DNA of 57,783 nt from Bacillota bacterium (lineage in GTDB: Bacteria; Bacillota; UBA4882; UBA10575), in NCBI GenBank assembly GCA_012838955.1, contig DUOH01000037.1, positions 1 to 57,783 on the forward strand, given 5' to 3'. Under the pieces are notes generated by a model that was given only the letters and a program-made list of their open reading frames with translations, was not told the origin of the DNA and did no database searches. The first letter of the stretch is position 1. Each line of letters begins with the position of its first letter. Below are positions 47,362-57,500 of this stretch, piece after piece. The position numbers were made by a program, and so were the translations under genes.

Positions 47362-47964
47362 TTATTCAGCAGATAATAAAAACATGGTATAAAAAGCGGT
47401 TTTAGCAGTCTCCTCTACTAGTTCTACAATATTCTCCGCTGCTGAAAGATCCTTACCCACTCCCACAAGGCCGTGTTCCTCCAATAGAGCCGCTTTGACA
47501 GCAGGTTCTTGAAAAGCTTCAACCACATGCGCGGCTAATTCCTGGGAGCCATCGGGAAATGCTTTTACTCTCGGCACCTTTTGCAGAATACGGCGGGCAT
47601 GAACAGTGAGTAAAGGAAGATCCTTTCGAGCGCAGGCAAAAGCCGTAGCAAACGGCGGATGAACATGTACAATCCCGCCGATGTCCGGTACTGAATTGTA
47701 GAGTCCCAAATGGAAGGCTACTTCTTTGGTGGGTTTTCCTTTACCGCTGATCAGTTCCCCTTGTTTATTAATAACCACTAAATCCTCGTAACGGAAATCC
47801 AATAATGAAGCGCCGGAACGCTTGGTGATGACCATATTACCGTCTTCAGCCAGCAAGCTTATATTACCGCCAGTAGAAGACTGCATACCAAGAGAAACTA
47901 GTCTTTTTACCACCCGAATATATTCACGGCACCCATCTGCTAAAGTCGGATAGTTCGTCATCAT
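47362..47964 (-). CDS. Class II aldolase/adducin family protein
   Basis: A 200-residue zinc-dependent aldolase-like enzyme, of the fuculose-phosphate aldolase group. Motifs are complete: SSTGGNISLL near residue 29, the phosphate-site TKRSGA, the catalytic Glu in GKPTKEVAFHLGLY, the zinc ligands HVHPPFATAFA and the third His in LLEEHGLVGVGK. Aldolases of this group cleave short sugar phosphates into a triose/aldehyde pair, often dihydroxyacetone phosphate or pyruvate, but the substrate here is not known. The start ATGATG at 47964 overlaps the stop of the lactonase-like gene, so the two are translationally coupled. It is the last gene of the cluster. A decarboxylase or epimerase of the same fold cannot be excluded. 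Confidence 0.88.
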   Translation of the reverse strand: MMTNYPTLADGCREYIRVVKRLVSLGMQSSTGGNISLLAEDGNMVITKRSGASLLDFRYEDLVVINKQGELISGKGKPTKEVAFHLGLYNSVPDIGGIVHVHPPFATAFACARKDLPLLTVHARRILQKVPRVKAFPDGSQELAAHVVEAFQEPAVKAALLEEHGLVGVGKDLSAAENIVELVEETAKTAFYTMFLLSAE

Positions 47965-48713
47965 TTGTAGATTTCCTTTTCTAAGACTTTCAGATCATGC
48001 CCTGGTAAGATCAGACTAGACCTTTTGGCAATTTTGACAAGACTATCCCACATCTCAAGATAACTGGTAAATCTGCCTATAGGTAAGAAAGGTAACTTTT
48101 CATCCGGAGCGCCTTTCAGATTTTCCTCTGTAAATACGGCATCGCCGGCTATTATATAATTACCCCCATCCGTCATGACTTCTACTGACTGATGGCCGGG
48201 GGAATGTCCGGGGGTTGGAAAAACAGTGACTCCAGGGATAATCTGCTCTTCACCTTCCACAACCGTAAAGGAAACGTCGACAAACGGGGGCTCTAAGCCT
48301 AAAACCGGAGATTCATAAGATCTATAATAAGGGGGAATTGGATCTTTAGCAAAATCCAATTCTTTTTTATGCACTATATATTCGGCATTAACAAATTCTT
48401 TCATATTATAGCAGTGATCCCAATGCAAATGAGTAAAAATGACAATGTCAATATCTTTGGGATTAACACCGATTTTCTGTAATTGACTGCAAATATCCAT
48501 TCCTTCATCTTGATAAGAACCCTTATGATGCCAATCAGCCATTTTGGTAGCAGCCATTCCCGTATCAACTAAGATCAGTTTTTCTCCGCCTTCTATTAAC
48601 CATGTTAATGCAGGGATATATACTTTTTTCCCCACATTCCTTCCTTGGGTGATATGAATACCCGTATCAACCTGGATCATTCCTGTGTTAATCGGCCGAA
48701 TACTTAATGCCAT
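47961..48713 (-). CDS. Metallo-beta-lactamase-fold hydrolase (lactonase-like)
   Basis: A 250-residue enzyme resembling the N-acyl homoserine lactonase (AttM/AiiA-type) branch of the metallo-beta-lactamase superfamily. The metal motif is TGGGENDHx-like in this form: FTHLHWDHCYN, then TPGHSPGHQSVEV, IIAGDAVFTEEN and LPGHDLKVL, giving all expected His/Asp ligands. There is no signal peptide. In this operon, opening a sugar lactone formed after oxidation is more plausible than quorum-signal degradation. I chose ATG 48713, since GGGAGGT is placed 8 bases before it; the upstream start adds 5 residues. It overlaps the aldolase gene and lies 26 bases after the Tm-1-like gene. Confidence 0.85.
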   Translation of the reverse strand: MALSIRPINTGMIQVDTGIHITQGRNVGKKVYIPALTWLIEGGEKLILVDTGMAATKMADWHHKGSYQDEGMDICSQLQKIGVNPKDIDIVIFTHLHWDHCYNMKEFVNAEYIVHKKELDFAKDPIPPYYRSYESPVLGLEPPFVDVSFTVVEGEEQIIPGVTVFPTPGHSPGHQSVEVMTDGGNYIIAGDAVFTEENLKGAPDEKLPFLPIGRFTSYLEMWDSLVKIAKRSSLILPGHDLKVLEKEIYK

Positions 48714-48739
48714 GATACTACCTCCCACTTTATTCTAGA

Positions 48740-49972
48740 TTATACTATGTTTGCTTGATGCAAAAGGTCTTGGAACTCCTCCGCCACACGCAGAGCAAAC
48801 TCTCTGTCATTAATATGAGCGTCAACTTTTATTATAGTAATATAAGGATTCTCTTTCGTGCTCTCTTCCAGCTTTTGAATAAATCCTTCGTCGGCTTCAG
48901 GGTTATAAAAAACGCCGCCCACTTTATTAGGTGCACAAAAGCCCTTTAGTGGTATAACTACCTTCACCGGTCTTTGGGTGTGGTTCAGTCTGGAGGCTAC
49001 CAGCTCAGCCACTTTAATCATTTCCTCTTTATTCGCCCGTACCAGTGTAATGTTTTTATTATGAATGATATGGGGCCGTTTTTGGTGTTCTTCCGGCATC
49101 TCTTCATATGGGCCTTGAATTATCTTCTCAAGACCACCCGGGACAATCAATTGTGGTATATTCTTCTCAATCGCCGCCATTAAGCGAGGACTATCGGAAG
49201 CAAAAATCCCATGGCAGATCCCTGCTGTAATCTGGTGTGGACTGTACTCCAACATGGCATCGAAAAAACCCTGTTTTACCAGTTCCTCCATGGCGTCCCC
49301 ACCGGGTCCGTTGGCATGAAAAGTGATAATCTCCAATCCTGCCTTCTCCAGGCAATCAACGACCTGCATCGCTCCTTTGGTTGTTGTTCCCAGCATGGAA
49401 AGGCCTACGCATATCTGGTTTGATCTCTCGACCGGCTTTGCTACTTCGATCATCCCGGCCAACGCGGCAACGGCATTTTTCAATATTTGACCAGAAATAC
49501 AATTAATGCCAAGTATATCCGTAACAGGGTTGATCATTACAATATCCTTGATTCCGACAAATCTGTGCACATCTCCAGATGTCAATGTGGAGACCATCAC
49601 CTTCGGAATACCGAGAGGAAGTACTTGCATGGCGGAAGTGCCGAGGTAGGTGCCTTGTCCACCACCCAAGCTGAGCAGACCGTCCAGTCTGCCTTCGCCA
49701 TATAGATTGCTTACCGCTTTTTTTACCCCATTCGCCATAGTTTCAATGGCAAAGTTCTTATCTCCCTTTTTGATCAGATCTGATAATTGGTTTCCACCTA
49801 ATTGCGCAATAGTCTCTCTGGTTAGATCACCTTTGATGTAAGGAACATTCAGAATTCCGACATCAATGACGATAGTATTAAAGCCCATATCCTGCGCGAT
49901 CCGACTGCAATAGTCGATTTCTTTTCCTTTAGTATCTAAGGTTCCAACTAATACTATAGTTTTTTTGGCCAT
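48740..49972 (-). CDS. Tm-1-like ATP-binding protein (UPF0261)
   Basis: A 410-residue protein of the UPF0261 family, related to the ATP-binding half of the plant virus-resistance protein Tm-1. The N-terminal part has KTIVLVGTLDTKGKEIDYCS, a marker of the family, then LSLGGGQGTYLGTSAMQVLP and VMVSTLTSGDVHRFVG, which form a nucleotide pocket. The C-terminal part has LSMLGTTTKGAMQVV, FHANGPGGDAMEELV and a VIPLKGFCAPNKVGG segment. Bacterial members have been placed in sugar-acid operons, but no reaction is firmly known to me. Its place between an importer and lactonase/aldolase genes suggests an ATP-dependent activation step. I start at ATG 49972 (AAGGTGG five bases upstream); a GTG lies 9 bases earlier. 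A 16-base-pair hairpin lies upstream. Confidence 0.88.
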   Translation of the reverse strand: MAKKTIVLVGTLDTKGKEIDYCSRIAQDMGFNTIVIDVGILNVPYIKGDLTRETIAQLGGNQLSDLIKKGDKNFAIETMANGVKKAVSNLYGEGRLDGLLSLGGGQGTYLGTSAMQVLPLGIPKVMVSTLTSGDVHRFVGIKDIVMINPVTDILGINCISGQILKNAVAALAGMIEVAKPVERSNQICVGLSMLGTTTKGAMQVVDCLEKAGLEIITFHANGPGGDAMEELVKQGFFDAMLEYSPHQITAGICHGIFASDSPRLMAAIEKNIPQLIVPGGLEKIIQGPYEEMPEEHQKRPHIIHNKNITLVRANKEEMIKVAELVASRLNHTQRPVKVVIPLKGFCAPNKVGGVFYNPEADEGFIQKLEESTKENPYITIIKVDAHINDREFALRVAEEFQDLLHQANIV

Positions 49973-50050
49973 TATAACCACCTTTATTTCCTATCCCATT
50001 TATACTACTCCTCATCCTGTCTCTGATCTAAAAGAAGGCACGCCTTCTGT

Positions 50051-50095
50051 CCAAGGGCCCACTTGACTTTCTTCCGTTTTCAAGTGGGCCCTTGG
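50051..50095. other. Perfect 16-base-pair hairpin between importer and catabolic genes
   Basis: CCAAGGGCCCACTTGA (50051-50066) pairs perfectly with TCAAGTGGGCCCTTGG (50080-50095) around a 13-base loop. Neither side has a T run, so it is not a standard terminator. It follows the binding-protein gene and precedes the Tm-1-like gene; partial termination or RNA processing is possible. Confidence 0.8.
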
Positions 50096-50102
50096 TTACA
50101 GT

Positions 50103-51086
50103 CTAGAATTTAATCTTCCAACCTTTAGGCACGCTATTGGGTTTCAAATCAGTTACATCCAACATATCCCTGGTCAACAAGTCATGATAGATCCAGGTCA
50201 TTTCCGGAACTTTCTCCCCTTTAACTAGGGATACGGCAATTTCCATAGATTGGCTGGCCATGTCAACCGGTCTGCTCAGACCTAAAACAGTAATCCATCC
50301 TTCTTCAAACAAGCTTTTGGTTAAGTCGCTCATATTAAAACCAAGGACCTTAACTTCACCGGGTTTCTTCCCGGCCGCCCGTAAAGCTTGGATTACGCCT
50401 TGGGTAAGCTGATCGGCAAAACAAGTAATGTATTCTACATCAGGATGGGCTTGAATCAGATCTTCCATTACTCTTAATCCCGCAGCCACATTACTCTCAC
50501 AATACTGGATATCTAAGATCTCAATCCCCGGGAATCTCCGGAAAACCTCTTGTTGTCCCTGTAACAATAAGGTATTTTGGTCTCCCCCTACGGGACCCGG
50601 CAAGATGATGACTTTTCCTTTTCCTTTGGAATCCAACGCCACCCACTGGGCAAAGGCGCGTCCAGTAGCAAAGAAATCAATCATGATTGTGGAGTGAATT
50701 GACGGAGCCGGACAAGGCTGATTATCATTAACAACCTTGATCCCTTGCCTAATCGCTTCTTCAATTACAGGAACACCTGCTTCCGAGTGACAGGGGTGAT
50801 AGATAATGGCGTCAACACCCTTTTGGACAACATCTTCAACTTGATTGATTTGCTTGGAGACATTGGCATAACCGCCTGCATCGTATAGAAGGGCTTTAAC
50901 TCCGAGTTTCTTCGCAGCAGTGGAGTAGCCATACCATTTCTTCTGGAAATATACATCACCCACGTTAGGCAACATTACTGCTACCACTATTTCATCCTTT
51001 GCCGCGTTTACTGCGGGCCCCATAAGGTTAAAACCGCTGAAAAGACAAGCCACAATAAGTAATACGGATATAACTGTTTTTTTCAT
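50103..51086 (-). CDS. Ribose-type substrate-binding protein
   Basis: A 327-residue exported binding protein of the Peripla_BP_4 (RbsB/TorT-like) group. The signal peptide (KTVISVLLIVACLFSGFNLM, ending near PAVNA) has a VAC cysteine, but the hydrophobic stretch continues, so cleavage at AVNA by signal peptidase I is more likely. The mature protein begins DEIVVAVMLPNVGDVYFQKKW; then QVEDVVQKGVDAIIYHPCH, the GIKVVNDNQPCPAPS segment, GKVIILPGPVGGDQNTLLLQG and VLGFNMSDLT. Unusually, the binding-protein gene is last of the three importer genes. The ligand is unknown: a sugar or polyol by family. The ribosome site is AGGGAGG. Confidence 0.9.
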   Translation of the reverse strand: MKKTVISVLLIVACLFSGFNLMGPAVNAAKDEIVVAVMLPNVGDVYFQKKWYGYSTAAKKLGVKALLYDAGGYANVSKQINQVEDVVQKGVDAIIYHPCHSEAGVPVIEEAIRQGIKVVNDNQPCPAPSIHSTIMIDFFATGRAFAQWVALDSKGKGKVIILPGPVGGDQNTLLLQGQQEVFRRFPGIEILDIQYCESNVAAGLRVMEDLIQAHPDVEYITCFADQLTQGVIQALRAAGKKPGEVKVLGFNMSDLTKSLFEEGWITVLGLSRPVDMASQSMEIAVSLVKGEKVPEMTWIYHDLLTRDMLDVTDLKPNSVPKGWKIKF

Positions 51087-51288
51087 CAGAAACTTTTCCT
51101 CCCTTTACTTCAGTGTTAAATAGGTGCTGAATTATATTCGACCATCCCAATAGCTTACTGTTTTATCCCGGCCCACCTCCTTCCAGTTCACTCGGGTATT
51201 CGCTGTATTGAAATAACCTTCCCTAGGGAAATACTTACTCTACTCTACTCTGACAAACTAAACCCATGGACTCTTCGCCTACAGTAAA

Positions 51289-52269
51289 TTACGACCTTTT
51301 CTTCTTAATCGAAGTCATGTAGACAGAGATGATGATGACTGCGCCAATCAAAACCCGCTGCACGAAAGTGGAGATCCCTAAGATATTTAAGCCGTTGGTC
51401 ATAAAACCGATAAAGAGAACTCCGAAAATAGTATTGGTTACTCCGCCCTTACCGCCAGTGAGGAGTGTCCCACCAATAACTGTGGCGCCCAGGGATTGCA
51501 TGGAATATTCCTGTCCTACTATAGGTTGTCCGGAAACCATTCTGGCGGTCAGAACAATACTAGCTAAAGCGCTTAATAACCCACTCAAGGCAAAAACAAT
51601 GATTTGTATTCGGTCAACATTAATTCCGGATAACCGTGCCGCCTCTTTATTACCGCCCACCGCATATATATATCTGCCCAGTTTGGTTTTTTTCAGAACA
51701 AAATACAAGATTAAAAAGACGACAATCGCAATAATTAACGGTACCGGGAACCAGCCTACATAACCTCCGCCTATTACAAAAAACTTATTTATTACATTTC
51801 CCGGTATATTGGTGACCGGCAATCCGTTATTAGAGATTAGAGCCAAACCGTCAGCAATATATTGCATGGCCAAGGAAGCCACAAAAGGCAATAACTTTGC
51901 TTTACCGACTAATAGTCCGGTGACACTGCCGCAAGCTAGACCCGTCAGAATACCGATGATCACTCCCGGAACCAAACCGTATTTACATAGTGACAAGGCT
52001 GTAGTCATACTGACTAGGGAAATAACGGAACCTTGGGAAAGATCAATACCGCTGGTCAACAAGACAAGTGTCTGCCCGCAAGCGACGATAAATAAAATTG
52101 ACGACTGTCTCAGCACATTACGGATATTGTTTAGGGTAAGAAATCTGTCACTGAGGAAGGTCAGGACAATCATCATAATCACAAAAGCAATAGGTATACC
52201 ATACTTATTCAAGTCCAGGTTAAATTTTCGCCCATTTATTCTGTTCGTTTCTGCAACCGCCTTTTCCAT
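51289..52269 (-). CDS. Ribose-type ABC transporter permease
   Basis: A 326-residue permease with about eight to ten helices, RbsC/XylH type. Marks are the first helix YGIPIAFVIMMIVLTFL, SSILFIVACGQTLVLLTSGIDLS (part of the conserved IDLSxGS segment: GIDLSQGSVISL), RYIYAVGGNKEAARLSGINVDR and YSMQSLGATVIGGTLLTGGKG. It ends in a short basic tail (SIKKKRS). Start ATG 52269 follows GAGGAGGAAG and lies 20 bases after the ATPase gene, so they are co-transcribed. A 200-base gap separates it from the binding-protein gene. Confidence 0.92.
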   Translation of the reverse strand: MEKAVAETNRINGRKFNLDLNKYGIPIAFVIMMIVLTFLSDRFLTLNNIRNVLRQSSILFIVACGQTLVLLTSGIDLSQGSVISLVSMTTALSLCKYGLVPGVIIGILTGLACGSVTGLLVGKAKLLPFVASLAMQYIADGLALISNNGLPVTNIPGNVINKFFVIGGGYVGWFPVPLIIAIVVFLILYFVLKKTKLGRYIYAVGGNKEAARLSGINVDRIQIIVFALSGLLSALASIVLTARMVSGQPIVGQEYSMQSLGATVIGGTLLTGGKGGVTNTIFGVLFIGFMTNGLNILGISTFVQRVLIGAVIIISVYMTSIKKKRS

Positions 52270-52289
52270 CTCTTCTTCCTCCTCAACTT

Positions 52290-53786
52290 TTACTGATTAA
52301 CGACAACCGCCTTATGCAATTTTTCTTGAGTTGCTTCCGAGCGTGGGAACTCCTCTTTGATCCTTCCTTCACTCATGACCAAAATACGATCACTCATCCC
52401 AAGCAACTCCGGCAACTCACTAGAGATCATGATGATACTTCCGCCTTCTTTTGTCAGCTCCAGCATTATCTTGTAGATTTCCACCTTGGCGCCGACATCA
52501 ATCCCACGGGTCGGCTCATCAAAGATAATAATCTTCGATTGAGAGCAGAGCCATTTGGCCAAAACAACCTTTTGTTGATTACCTCCGCTTAAGCTTTCAG
52601 CCTGCGTAAACATACTCGGCGTTTTAATACTAAGTTGATTAATTAAGTCTGTTACTGCCTCTTTCTCCTGCTTATCATTGATAAATAAACTCTTAATGAA
52701 ACGACCTAAAGCGGAATACGTAGTATTATTGAGGACAGACGCGATTAGGGATAATCCTTGATTTTTTCGATCCTCCGGTAAAAGTCCGATTCCGTAACTA
52801 ATTGCTTCTCTGGGATTTCTGATTCTTCTGGGAACCCCATTGATGATGATTTCTCCGGATTCAATGTGATCAGCTCCGAATATCGCCCTGGCCAGCTCGG
52901 TCCTTCCTGCGCCCAACAGGCCATATATCCCAAGGATTTCCCCTGCTTTCAGCTGAAAATTTATATCCTTCAATTTGCTGTTGTTAAGGTTAATAACCTC
53001 CAGCACTGTATCACCAATCGGGCGTTCTTCATAAGGAAACTGATTTGTTATACTACGTCCAACAATCATGGTGATTAATTCATCATGGGAGGTCTCCTTA
53101 ATAATTTTAGTGCCGATATAGGTTCCGTCCCGCAAAACAGTGGCGCGATCTCCGATTTCAAAGACCTCTTCCATTCTGTGACCGATATAGATGATTCCCA
53201 CACCTTGATTCCGAAGTCTCTTGATCAAGGCAAATAACTCATTGGTCTCATCTTGAGTCAATGAAGATGTAGGTTCATCCATGACGATGATCTTCGCATC
53301 CAAAGAAAGAGACTTGGCAATCTCCACGATCTGCCGTTGAGCGATGCTCAAATCCTGTACAATGCAAGAAGGATCAATATTACTGTTTATACTTTCCAAT
53401 AACTCCTTTGCTTTCTGAAACATCTGCTTTTTATCGATGAGCAGTTTGTTTTCCATTGGTTCATTTCCTAAGAAAATGTTTTCCGCCACTGTTAAGTACG
53501 GAACTAATTGCAGTTCCTGATAGATTACTGATATTCCCAGCTTTCTTGACAAATATGGTGAAATTTCCTTTACCACTTTTCCCTCGATTTGAATCTCCCC
53601 GGCATCAGGTTGATACGCTCCTGATAAGATCTTGATCAGAGTAGATTTACCGGCTCCGTTCTCCCCCAACAAAACGTGAACTTCTCCTTTTTTTAGGTCA
53701 AACGAGATATTATCCAGCGCCTTAACTCCGGGGAAAGACTTGCAAATACCTTTCATCCTCAATACTGTTTCCTTTTCATTTTCCAT
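52290..53786 (-). CDS. Ribose-type ABC transporter ATPase, two domains
   Basis: A 498-residue RbsA/XylG-type ATPase. Domain 1 has Walker A GENGAGKST, Q-loop VIYQELQLVPYLT, signature DLSIAQRQIVEIAKSL, Walker B IIVMDEPTSSLT and the His-loop IYIGHRMEEV. Domain 2 has the usual degenerate Walker A (GLLGAGRTEL), a full signature LSGGNQQKVVLAKWL and IIFDEPTRGIDVGAK. It is first in the operon and its start has CAAAGGAGGTAG upstream. About 280 bases of leader separate it from the promoter with the GntR-type operator, so a long untranslated leader is expected. Confidence 0.93.
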   Translation of the reverse strand: MENEKETVLRMKGICKSFPGVKALDNISFDLKKGEVHVLLGENGAGKSTLIKILSGAYQPDAGEIQIEGKVVKEISPYLSRKLGISVIYQELQLVPYLTVAENIFLGNEPMENKLLIDKKQMFQKAKELLESINSNIDPSCIVQDLSIAQRQIVEIAKSLSLDAKIIVMDEPTSSLTQDETNELFALIKRLRNQGVGIIYIGHRMEEVFEIGDRATVLRDGTYIGTKIIKETSHDELITMIVGRSITNQFPYEERPIGDTVLEVINLNNSKLKDINFQLKAGEILGIYGLLGAGRTELARAIFGADHIESGEIIINGVPRRIRNPREAISYGIGLLPEDRKNQGLSLIASVLNNTTYSALGRFIKSLFINDKQEKEAVTDLINQLSIKTPSMFTQAESLSGGNQQKVVLAKWLCSQSKIIIFDEPTRGIDVGAKVEIYKIMLELTKEGGSIIMISSELPELLGMSDRILVMSEGRIKEEFPRSEATQEKLHKAVVVNQ

Positions 53787-54047
53787 GATACTACCTCCTT
53801 TGTCAGGTATTCCGTCTCAGCAAACTCAATTTATTGGCCAATTCCCCCTTTTCCGCTATAAACGTTGAAAATCTACCTTAACTAACTGGGACTGTTGACA
53901 TGATTCATGAGCCAACCAAAAGAACCTGTTTACATTTTTTTACAAATAACATTGTTTGTCCAATATAGCTCTTTCTTAATATATGTAACCAAGTGTTCAT
54001 ACAAAATTTAATCAATTTTTTTATAATAACCAGATGACAAGGTGATT
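53787..54047 (-). other. Long leader of the importer operon
   Basis: The predicted transcript runs about 280 bases from the operator-bearing promoter to the ATPase start. I see AT-rich DNA, an ACAAA/TTTGT pair near 53940-53960 and no reading frame that looks coding. I recognise no riboswitch; a regulatory leader remains possible. Confidence 0.4.
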
Positions 54048-54102
54048 AGTTGGTTATACCACTTTCTATAACAAGAATACCTGATCTTACTTTTATTGTC
54101 AA
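54048..54102 (-). promoter_or_regulatory. Promoter and GntR operator of the importer operon
   Basis: On the minus strand a TTGACA -35 (54097-54102) and a TATTCT -10 (54074-54079) are 17 bases apart. Immediately downstream is the plus-strand motif AGTTGGTTATACCACTTT (54048-54065), containing the FadR/GntR-like TGGT-N3-ACCA palindrome. The identical 18 bases, in the same layout, occur before the GntR gene itself. Confidence 0.82.
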
Positions 54103-54180
54103 GAACTTTTTCACTTTTATTTCCCAACACTACCGCAGATCGCTAATAGTGTGTACAGTACTGAATGAGAATTATAAAAA

Positions 54181-54207
54181 ACCCTCCTCAATGACAAAAG
54201 GGAGGGC
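54181..54207 (-). terminator. Rho-independent terminator after the aldehyde oxidoreductase
   Basis: CCCTCC (54182-54187) and GGAGGG (54201-54206) flank a 13-base loop; on the minus strand T6 follows. It lies about 20 bases after the oxidoreductase stop. Confidence 0.8.
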
Positions 54208-54224
54208 TCTTTATACTGCTTTTC

Positions 54225-56153
54225 TTATTTACCTAATTTATTAATCTTTTCCAGATCATCCGCCACCTGCTTCAATCCAAGCTTTTCCAAGGTGGCGCGT
54301 GTCGGATAACTGGTTTCTTTATCCCAGCCATGTAGCTCATAATACTCATCAAGCAACCGATCATATTCCGCCCGATCTATTCTCCATCCTCTTAACTTGC
54401 CTGAGGGAATAGGCTCTGCTAAGTCGCGCGGCGTAGGCAGATCATCAGCCCGGGCAAAATCAGTGAATCTTAAGTTGAAGGCTTTTTCCAGGTTCAACTG
54501 TCGCATGGCAATTTCTTCGAAATCATCGACACTGACTTCCCGGCCGATCGCTGCGGAATAGAACTCCGCTATATGAGGCAGGTTAATAAAGTTGATATCT
54601 ACAGAGATTGTATTATAGTGACAGATTCCTAAAGAATTATTTATCCTGTGTGAAACCTCCATATACTTGACAAGCTGTGCCTTTCCCTCATAGGAGAGGG
54701 CGTCCAACGGATCATCAACATCAATGTTAAATACTTTCCTGGCTTTTTCCTTATCGTTATTGGGAAAAGTCTCGGTAATCAACGCGCCGGTAGTGTGACC
54801 GCCTCCTCTGGTGGAGGTGGCTGTGCCCAGACACCACCCTACAGAGCCTCGTAAAACCTCATAAAGATCCTGTCCTTTAATATGCATGGCATAATAATCG
54901 CTATCCCTGCCTATAATCTGTGCCGCCTTCGCACAGCCTTCAGCCAGGATATTACCGAAGCCCTTCCGATAGGCGATCTTCTCCGCCAGTTCCAGAGCAA
55001 CTGCGGCATCGCCCCATTCGAGTTTCATACCACCGGTATCCTTCTCCGTAATTATCCCTCGCTGATAACACTCCATGGCCCAACCAATGGCCCCGCCCAC
55101 CAGGTTCACATCCAATCCCAATTGGTTGCAGAGGGCATTTGCCTTAACCATAAAAGTAGGCTCCTCTATGGCTAATCTGGTTTGAATCGTGCTAAAAGTC
55201 TCCCACTGGTTGCTGGTGGTTTTCAACCCTTTATACGGCCCCTCGGTGATATGGAGCCGTCTTCCGCATCCTCCTACTCCGCACCCGGGAAAGCTCTCCG
55301 GGCCAATCTCATATTTTTTCACAGTTATTCTGGGATCAATCTTCTCAAATAGCTCTTCCGGGATAGACGACTCTTGAAAGTTCTTCCAATTATTCCCAGA
55401 GATCTCTTGTTTTCTTCCGTAGCAGTGTAGAGTACCGTATTTCCCTAAATTACTTCCTTCGTATAATTTCCTGTACTCCTTCACCGCCTGCATAAATCGT
55501 TCCGGTTGAGCCACTTTAATGGCATGCGACCCTTTGGCGATAATCATCTTCAGATTTTTGGAACCCATTACTGCTCCGGTTCCACATCTCCCGAAAGCCC
55601 TGTTTTTATCCTGGATAATACAGGCTCCTCTTACCAGGTTTTCCCCTGCCGGTCCTATTGATACCGCATGCAAATCCGGATCATTAAGTTCCTCCCTGAT
55701 TAGGTCAAGAGCGTCCCAGGTTGTCTTCCCCCAAAGCCGGGAAGCGTCCCTAATCTCAATCCGCTCATCCTCAATCCAGAGATAAACAGGGGTCGATGCC
55801 TTCCCCTCGATTACCAACAGGTCGTAGCCGGCATATTTCAAATGTAGTCCCACATAACTATCACTTAACCCGCTGGCCCAACCGCCGGTAACCGGACCCA
55901 GCGTACTGACGCTCATTTTATTGGCGCCAATGGCTGGAGTGCCCAATAACGCGCCTGCGCCGAAAATCAGTTTATTCATGGGATCATAAGGAGTCACCCA
56001 GGGCTGCAATTCATCATAGAGTATTTTTATGGCTATGCCTGTCGAACCAAGCCAGTCATCAATATACTTAGTAGTCGGTTCAGTGGAGATTTCTCCGTTA
56101 GACAAGTTTACCCTCAATATTTTGCCGGCATATGCATATAAATGCTCAGACAT
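54225..56153 (-). CDS. Aldehyde:ferredoxin oxidoreductase family (tungsten/molybdenum)
   Basis: A 642-residue enzyme of the AOR family, which oxidises aldehydes to acids (or the reverse) with ferredoxin. The N-terminal domain is typical: AGKILRVNLSNGEIS, LIFGAGALLGTPAIGANKMS, GPVTGGWASGLSDSYVG and the pterin-binding AFGRCGTGAVMGSKNLK. The late RGGGHTTGA and NNSLGICHYNT segments carry the last cluster cysteine. The usual CxxCxxxC cluster motif reads SFPGCGVGGCGRRLH here, with only two cysteines in a C-x4-C spacing, so one normal [4Fe-4S] ligand seems missing. The start has GGAGGTACAGAAGG upstream. It follows a ferredoxin gene by about 70 bases. The substrate is unknown. Confidence 0.9.
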   Translation of the reverse strand: MSEHLYAYAGKILRVNLSNGEISTEPTTKYIDDWLGSTGIAIKILYDELQPWVTPYDPMNKLIFGAGALLGTPAIGANKMSVSTLGPVTGGWASGLSDSYVGLHLKYAGYDLLVIEGKASTPVYLWIEDERIEIRDASRLWGKTTWDALDLIREELNDPDLHAVSIGPAGENLVRGACIIQDKNRAFGRCGTGAVMGSKNLKMIIAKGSHAIKVAQPERFMQAVKEYRKLYEGSNLGKYGTLHCYGRKQEISGNNWKNFQESSIPEELFEKIDPRITVKKYEIGPESFPGCGVGGCGRRLHITEGPYKGLKTTSNQWETFSTIQTRLAIEEPTFMVKANALCNQLGLDVNLVGGAIGWAMECYQRGIITEKDTGGMKLEWGDAAVALELAEKIAYRKGFGNILAEGCAKAAQIIGRDSDYYAMHIKGQDLYEVLRGSVGWCLGTATSTRGGGHTTGALITETFPNNDKEKARKVFNIDVDDPLDALSYEGKAQLVKYMEVSHRINNSLGICHYNTISVDINFINLPHIAEFYSAAIGREVSVDDFEEIAMRQLNLEKAFNLRFTDFARADDLPTPRDLAEPIPSGKLRGWRIDRAEYDRLLDEYYELHGWDKETSYPTRATLEKLGLKQVADDLEKINKLGK

Positions 56154-56226
56154 CCTTCTGTACCTCCTGCTGTGAAATCTGGAATAACTGGGGTGATCAC
56201 TTTATCCGACTTATTTTTCTGTCATA

Positions 56227-56514
56227 TTATTCCGCAATTTGTCTCCGCTTACTGAAAAACTCCTCCAATATCTCACGTAAAAAATCACTATGCGCGCAGT
56301 GTTCTAGGCAAAGCGGGATCTCCTCTCCTACGCAACAATCACAGGAAATACCGGCATCTCCCTCCTCCAGTAGTTCTACTATGTAACCTGCTTCCCCATT
56401 TTTCTTAATAATCTTGATGCTTGAGGCAGCAAAAGAAAAATCCCCCTGATGATGAAAAGAACATGCCAACTCGCACGTCTTACATCCACCACAGTTCGGC
56501 ATATCAAATTTCAA
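56227..56514 (-). CDS. Small ferredoxin-like protein paired with the aldehyde oxidoreductase
   Basis: A 95-residue iron-sulfur protein. The N-terminal motif CGGCKTCELACSFHH gives four cysteines for one [4Fe-4S] cluster (C-x2-C-x2-C-x3-C), and CDCCVGEEIPLCLEHC gives several more for a second. Such small HycB/DmsB-like ferredoxins are often next to AOR-family genes and take their electrons. The C terminus is a charged helix. I choose the TTG at 56514, which has AAAGGGGGA six bases before it; an ATG at 56541 would add nine residues and lacks a good site. It lies between the GntR gene (37 bases upstream) and the oxidoreductase, and probably forms one operon with both. Confidence 0.85.
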   Translation of the reverse strand: MKFDMPNCGGCKTCELACSFHHQGDFSFAASSIKIIKKNGEAGYIVELLEEGDAGISCDCCVGEEIPLCLEHCAHSDFLREILEEFFSKRRQIAE

Positions 56515-56550
56515 GATATATCCCCCTTTTCTATGTTGCATTCAGAAACA

Positions 56551-57249
56551 TCAGATTCTCTGTAACACCAGCTTCTTAATGATTTCCAGATGTTCCCGCA
56601 TCATCACAGATGATTTTTGAGGATCGCCATCTCTGATTCCTTCATATACTCCATTATGATAAAACTCGATTTTTCCCAGGGAGTCTTCATCAAGAATATT
56701 GTATTCTTGATGTATAACCAACGTTTCACCAATACTATTAATAAACTTTTCAAAGAGCGTATTCTGAGAAGCCCTGGCAATTAGGGTATGAAATTTTTTG
56801 TCTTTTTCCGAAAAATCCCCATTAATGCCCTTCTTAAGCAATTTCAGTTCTTCCTCAACCTCTTCTTTTGCTGCTTTGATCTGCTTTTTCAAGTTCTCAT
56901 CCACATTTAAGGCGGCCAACCGTGCCGCTTCCGTCTCCAGGATGATTCTCAATTCCAACATTTCAATTACAGGTTTTTTCCCAAAGACCAGAAGTGTGGA
57001 TAAGGATTCAATCAGAAAATCGGTGTTATCTTTACTTACATAAGTCCCCCCTCCATGCCTTGTGTCTAAAATCCCTACATAACTCAGGATCCTCAAAGCC
57101 TCGCGCACCGGTATCCTGCTAACTCCATAGTTCTCCGCCAATTGCCTTTCATTAGGCAATTTATCTCCGGGTTTCAGTTTGCCTTTTATAATGGCTTGTT
57201 TAATCTCGTTCACAATTTGATCGCTGATACTCAGTTTTTTAATTTTCAT
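56551..57249 (-). CDS. GntR regulator, FadR subfamily (FCD domain)
   Basis: A 232-residue transcription regulator. The winged HTH (about residues 8-72) has GKLKPGDKLPNERQLAENYG, VSRIPVREALRILSYVG and the wing RHGGGTYVSK. The helical FCD domain carries the residues expected for metal or ligand binding: ETEAARLAA, DKKFHTLIARAS, and the His in MMREHLEIIKK. FCD regulators usually bind sugar acids or other small carboxylates, which fits a cluster making acids from aldehydes. I prefer the ATG at 57249, with AGGTGA about five bases before it; starts 6-9 bases earlier are possible. It probably binds the two identical operators at 54048 and 57446 and so controls itself. Confidence 0.92.
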   Translation of the reverse strand: MKIKKLSISDQIVNEIKQAIIKGKLKPGDKLPNERQLAENYGVSRIPVREALRILSYVGILDTRHGGGTYVSKDNTDFLIESLSTLLVFGKKPVIEMLELRIILETEAARLAALNVDENLKKQIKAAKEEVEEELKLLKKGINGDFSEKDKKFHTLIARASQNTLFEKFINSIGETLVIHQEYNILDEDSLGKIEFYHNGVYEGIRDGDPQKSSVMMREHLEIIKKLVLQRI

Positions 57250-57294
57250 CCTCATCACCTGACCCTTAATGTTATGAACCCCAAATGATAAGAT

Positions 57295-57415
57295 CTAGGC
57301 GCCTATGCGGATAATTAACACATATAGCATGTTACAAATAGCGGCTGATTCCTGTAAAAATTGTTCCTGTTGCGCTTCATCGTATATTATTCGGATTTTA
57401 GCGCATAGGCCCTAG
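57295..57415. repeat. Large imperfect inverted repeat in the GntR leader
   Basis: CTAGGCGCCTATGCG (57295-57309) pairs with CGCATAGGCCCTAG (57402-57415), with a single bulge, around a 92-base interior that shows no other strong pairing to me. It lies between the GntR start and its operator-bearing promoter, so it is in the transcribed leader. It could be an RNA structure or a small transposon-like (MITE) relic. Confidence 0.7.
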
Positions 57416-57445
57416 AAGAATTAATGAATAAGTGGTATAGAAATA

Positions 57446-57500
57446 AGTTGGTTATACCACTTTTCATCTCTAAGATATACCAAAATACTGCCTTTGTCAA
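57446..57500 (-). promoter_or_regulatory. Promoter and operator of the GntR/ferredoxin/oxidoreductase operon
   Basis: On the minus strand TTGACA (57495-57500) and TATCTT (57472-57477) are 17 bases apart. The operator AGTTGGTTATACCACTTT (57446-57463), identical to that at 54048, follows directly. A nearby AAGTGGTATA (57430-57439) makes an inverted half-site pair with the operator end. Confidence 0.83.

What the first reader, a model, noticed from the sequence alone, without database searches (positions are those of the whole stretch)
54048..57500. Two promoters with an identical 18-base GntR operator in the same layout
AGTTGGTTATACCACTTT occurs at 54048-54065 and 57446-57463. In each case a TTGACA -35 and a -10 box lie 17 bases apart just upstream on the minus strand. 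The core TGGT-N3-ACCA is the usual FadR-type GntR operator form. This links the regulator/ferredoxin/oxidoreductase unit and the importer unit in one regulon, and positions the operator to block transcription start.
Basis: seen in the sequence. Interest (0 to 1): 0.6.

Follow-up and report, generated by a model that had tools for sequence, protein, structure and literature searches.

The report
Local GntR repressor operator, two promoters
Two neighbouring promoters carry the same 18-base landing site at the same place, almost certainly so that one regulator encoded beside them can switch an importer and its enzymes on together; this is a real but ordinary bacterial control circuit, although the pathway it controls is uncharacterised.

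Summary
AAAGTGGTATAACCAACT (minus strand) lies at 54048-54065 and 57446-57463. In both promoters it follows TTGACA-N17-TATNNT with exactly 8 bases between the -10 box and the operator. No other site in the 2.52-Mb genome matches it credibly, and its 16-base core is absent from 397 other genomes of the phylum. The bare TGGT-N3-ACCA core is not enriched genome-wide, so only the full operator plus its layout is informative. The adjacent FCD-type GntR is the only one of the genome's six FCD regulators with the R28/R38/H58/G59 DNA contacts expected for TGGT boxes; Pro at position 40 is a mild counter-indication. Deltaproteobacterial relatives carry UPF0261, metallo-beta-lactamase, class II aldolase, ferredoxin-like and AOR genes in a row. 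Here they are split between the two transcripts, which supports one regulon independently of the operator. The most likely mechanism is local, autoregulated repression with a carboxylate inducer. No orthologue of the GntR was found, so phylogenetic footprinting was impossible, and binding is untested. Verdict: supported; a new member of a known kind; low to moderate interest. The uncharacterised conserved pathway is the more interesting part.

The parts
57446..57463 (-). Operator O1 (AAAGTGGTATAACCAACT) in the gntR promoter
   Evidence: exact match; genome uniqueness
57472..57500 (-). Promoter P1: TTGACA-17-TATCTT, 8 bases before O1
57430..57439 (+). Extra half-site AAGTGGTATA, inverted relative to the minus-strand half of O1, 13 nt from it; candidate auxiliary half-site or 5' RNA hairpin, at gntR only
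   Evidence: 10/10 match in 7 of 20000 shuffles of the flank; RNA stem
56551..57258 (-). GntR family regulator with FCD domain, proposed local repressor
   Evidence: Pfam GntR 1.8e-22 and FCD 4.1e-20; contact residues
56227..56541 (-). Ferredoxin-like small Cys-rich protein
   Evidence: weak HydN/ferredoxin-like NCBIfam matches; conserved partner of AOR
54225..56153 (-). Tungsten-type aldehyde:ferredoxin oxidoreductase (AOR)
   Evidence: Pfam AFOR_N/AFOR_C; PDB relatives
54182..54202 (-). Terminator-like hairpin ending the gntR-fd-AOR unit
   Evidence: the number found is near the shuffled expectation, so position is the argument
54048..54065 (-). Operator O2, identical to O1, in the importer promoter
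54074..54102 (-). Promoter P2: TTGACA-17-TATTCT, 8 bases before O2
52290..53786 (-). Sugar-type ABC transporter ATPase
51289..52269 (-). Sugar-type ABC permease
50103..51086 (-). Periplasmic-binding-protein-type solute-binding protein
   Evidence: Peripla_BP_4
48740..49981 (-). UPF0261 (Tm-1-like) protein
47961..48728 (-). Metallo-beta-lactamase-fold, lactonase-like hydrolase (real start probably the ATG at 48713)
47362..47964 (-). Class II aldolase-family protein

Best explanation
The two identical sites are operators for the GntR/FCD protein encoded at 56551-57258. A dimer bound at about +2 to +20 of each promoter would block RNA polymerase. It would thereby repress its own transcript (gntR, ferredoxin-like gene, AOR) and the importer transcript (ABC transporter, UPF0261, lactonase-like gene, aldolase). 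A substrate-derived carboxylate, held through the metal site in the FCD domain, would release it. The regulon appears confined to these two neighbouring transcripts. Shown: site identity, layout, uniqueness, domain composition, contact residues and gene-neighbourhood conservation. Inferred: binding by this protein, repression rather than activation, and the nature of the inducer.
For: Identical 18-mer in identical register with two consensus -35 boxes. Sites are restricted to the regulator's own cluster genome-wide. TKGT-N3-ACMA is the FadR-subfamily consensus, and Arg at position 28 and Gly at 59 correlate with G in the box (PMC4494728). The window GntR has R28, R38, H58 and G59; none of the five other FCD regulators of this genome has all four. 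E. coli PdhR shares R28, R38 and G59. FCD metal ligands D153, H157, H201 and H223 are invariant in an alignment with relatives and align with CgLldR 2di3. UPF0261-MBL-aldolase-fd-AOR lie in a row in L030 and L034, and sugar ABC genes sit beside fd-AOR in L032 and L039, so the two transcripts probably belong to one pathway.
Against: Pro at HTH position 40 correlates with avoidance of G/C in the box. There are only two sites, with no orthologous promoters to footprint. No binding or expression data exist. The 11-bp core alone is not enriched in the genome.
Confidence: 0.85

Rival explanations
1. The operator is bound by a different regulator of the same genome, and the adjacent GntR is incidental.
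For: Nine GntR-family proteins over the cut-off are encoded, six of them with FCD domains; Pro40 in the window GntR.
Against: The other five FCD regulators lack one or more of R28, R38, H58 and G59. The sites occur nowhere else, and one sits in the promoter of the window gntR itself.
Confidence: 0.08
2. The shared sequence acts in RNA, as a 5'-end hairpin that stabilises or regulates the transcripts.
For: At gntR the operator and the half-site at 57430-57439 fold into a terminal stem (z -1.85 for the whole leader).
Against: The importer leader forms no such stem and folds no better than shuffles (z 0.17). No Rfam family matches above its gathering score. The shared part is a DNA-palindrome-type GntR site.
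Confidence: 0.04
3. Chance repeat, or a remnant of duplicated promoter DNA.
For: -35 and -10 boxes are shared as well as the operator.
Against: Of 58 identical positions in 111 aligned, roughly half fall in the boxes and operator, and the rest is near background. Shuffles give 0 of 100 with two matches.
Confidence: 0.02

Closest known systems
PdhR/LldR/FadR-type GntR-FCD repressors and their TGGT-N3-ACCA operators
   Same: GntR+FCD domains, R28/R38 (and G59 in PdhR) contacts, operator with 3-nt spacer, FCD metal ligands, operator in the regulator's own promoter
   Different: The protein is only distantly related (PDB matches by phmmer at E 1e-13 to 1e-15; NCBIfam PdhR 115 bits against a cut-off of 330), controls a different pathway, and has Pro at position 40
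NanR of E. coli
   Same: FCD family, and the half-site TGGTATAA matches NanR's TGGTATAW box (PMC4494728); 107-bit NCBIfam match (cut-off 260)
   Different: NanR uses direct repeats; here the boxes are inverted (TGGT-N3-ACCA)
AOR gene clusters of Deltaproteobacteria (L030, L034)
   Same: UPF0261, MBL, class II aldolase, ferredoxin-like protein and AOR in a row
   Different: Branched-chain-amino-acid-type ABC transporter instead of sugar-type, all genes in one row, no GntR relative detected in the fetched loci

Membership tests
FadR-subfamily (GntR-FCD) regulator | N-terminal GntR winged helix plus C-terminal FCD domain | tested here: met
   Pfam GntR 1.8e-22, FCD 4.1e-20, both over cut-off
FadR-subfamily (GntR-FCD) regulator | Operator TKGT-N3-ACMA | tested here: met
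   TGGT-ATA-ACCA at both promoters; consensus from PMC4494728. That this protein binds it is not shown.
FadR-subfamily (GntR-FCD) regulator | DNA-contact residues Arg28, Arg38, Gly59 of the HTH domain | tested here: met
   R38, R48 and G69 of the window protein; Pro at position 40 is atypical for G-containing boxes
FadR-subfamily (GntR-FCD) regulator | FCD metal ligands Asp/His/His/His | tested here: met
   D153, H157, H201, H223 invariant, aligned with 2di3
FadR-subfamily (GntR-FCD) regulator | Demonstrated binding to the operator and ligand-induced release | not testable with these tools
   needs gel shift or footprint
PdhR, LldR, NanR, GlcC, FadR equivalogs | NCBIfam equivalog/subfamily score cut-off | tested here: not met
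   115, 112, 107, 97 and 48 bits against cut-offs of 330, 311, 260, 301 and 189-249
Aldehyde:ferredoxin oxidoreductase (AOR) | AFOR_N and AFOR_C domains | tested here: met
   PDB relatives 1aor, 9mqx

The most novel reading that the evidence does not exclude
The two operators delimit the regulon of an uncharacterised catabolic pathway that is conserved across phyla (UPF0261 + lactonase-like hydrolase + class II aldolase + tungsten AOR with its ferredoxin-like partner), with a regulator of new specificity. The GntR ligand would then give the substrate class and an entry to the function of UPF0261.
Probability: 0.6. Interest if true: 0.45.

Novelty: new member of a known kind. Interest (0 to 1): 0.27.

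Why it matters
It defines a two-transcript local regulon and thereby assigns an importer, an AOR and the poorly understood UPF0261 family to one pathway. The regulator's inducer would be a direct handle on the unknown substrate.

Tried and rejected
(1) Core TGGTN3ACCA as a genome-wide regulon marker: not enriched. (2) Third TGGTTATACCA in the genome: inside a miaA-like gene. (3) Orthologous GntR clusters for footprinting: none at E<=1e-38 in the class or E<=1e-42 in the phylum sample, and none in genome contigs. (4) G007 has the AOR at 89% identity, but its upstream ferredoxin-like gene is only partial, no importer follows, and no TGGTN3ACCA lies beside it. (5) GntR-UPF0261 pairs in the same family (L067, L068): different regulators (30-33% identity), with no TKGT-N3-ACMA site upstream of them. 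(6) Riboswitch or other RNA family: no Rfam match above gathering score. (7) Papers on UPF0261 or AOR-GntR regulation: nothing directly relevant found.

Full report
Observation. The 18-mer is exact at both stated places. On the minus strand the two promoters read TTGACA-N17-TATCTT-N8-AAAGTGGTATAACCAACT (57500 downwards) and TTGACA-N17-TATTCT-N8-AAAGTGGTATAACCAACT (54102 downwards). The -35, -10 and operator are therefore in the same register, while the remaining sequence is largely different. The promoter pattern TTGACA-N17-TANNNT occurs only at these two places in the window, both strands counted.

Chance. In the genome (2.52 Mb, 98% complete) no other credible copy exists, and the 16-base core is absent from 397 other genomes of the phylum. 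The 11-base core TGGTN3ACCA by itself is not informative: 41 genome sites against 59 for the reversed control. The motif argument therefore rests on the full 18-mer and its layout, not on the core.

Genes. The minus-strand order is gntR-FCD, ferredoxin-like protein, AOR, a terminator-like hairpin, promoter and operator 2, then ABC ATPase, permease, binding protein, UPF0261, lactonase-like MBL protein and class II aldolase. From the predicted starts, P1 has a leader of about 200 nt and P2 one of about 280 nt.

Which protein binds. The published FadR-subfamily consensus is TKGT-N3-ACMA, with Arg28 and Gly59 of the HTH correlated with G in the box, and Pro40 anti-correlated (PMC4494728). The genome encodes nine GntR-family proteins over the cut-off. 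Six have FCD domains. Only the window protein has R28, R38, H58 and G59 together. It also has Pro40, which is a mild counter-indication. FCD metal ligands are intact, so a carboxylate effector is likely from knowledge of the family.

One regulon. Relatives of the AOR at 60-67% identity were fetched from genome contigs. In L030 and L034 the same genes that are split between two transcripts here (UPF0261, MBL, aldolase on one; ferredoxin-like, AOR on the other) lie in a row in one direction, behind a branched-chain-type ABC transporter. In L032 and L039 sugar-type ABC genes sit beside fd-AOR. This is evidence, independent of the operator, that the two transcripts serve one pathway.

Mechanism. 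The predicted start sites lie about 7 bases after the -10 boxes, so the operator covers roughly +2 to +20. This is a position for repression by blocking polymerase; it is inferred, not shown. At gntR a further half-site (57430-57439) matches 10 of 10 bases in inverted orientation (7 of 20000 shuffles of that flank). Additional half-sites are known in this family, at 7-12 nt from the site centre. Here the distance is about 20 nt, so it may instead be a 5' hairpin in the RNA.

Limits. No orthologous GntR cluster was found, so conservation of the operator could not be tested. Nothing here measures binding.

Verdict. Observation confirmed, interpretation supported. It is an ordinary local repressor circuit and a new member of a known kind. 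The conserved but uncharacterised AOR/UPF0261 pathway is the part worth following.

Noticed in passing
L030:7045-11917, L034:7081-11914, window 47362-56541: UPF0261, MBL lactonase-like, class II aldolase, ferredoxin-like and AOR genes recur together across phyla with different transporter types: a probable uncharacterised catabolic pathway.
   Followed up: partly
window 57259-57465: The gntR leader can fold a 5'-terminal stem (operator plus half-site) and a long-range stem (about 57295-57310 with 57401-57416); no Rfam family matches.
   Followed up: partly
window 48710-48725 and 53783-53798: The start regions of the MBL gene and the ABC ATPase gene share the 16-base stretch GGAGGTAGTATCATGG; the MBL protein probably starts at the ATG at 48713, not at the GTG at 48728.
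   Followed up: yes
window 50051-50095: A 15-16-base inverted repeat (CAAGGGCCCACTTGA / TCAAGTGGGCCCTTG) without a T-run lies between the binding-protein and UPF0261 genes, possibly an mRNA-stabilising or attenuating hairpin.
   Followed up: no
L047:1-2456 (G007): A same-family genome keeps the AOR at 89% identity, but with only a partial ferredoxin-like gene upstream and no importer or operator beside it: patchy distribution of the cluster.
   Followed up: partly
L067:5889-8158, L068:8107-10825: Other genomes of the family pair a different FCD-GntR (about 30% identity) directly with a 40%-identical UPF0261 gene.
   Followed up: partly
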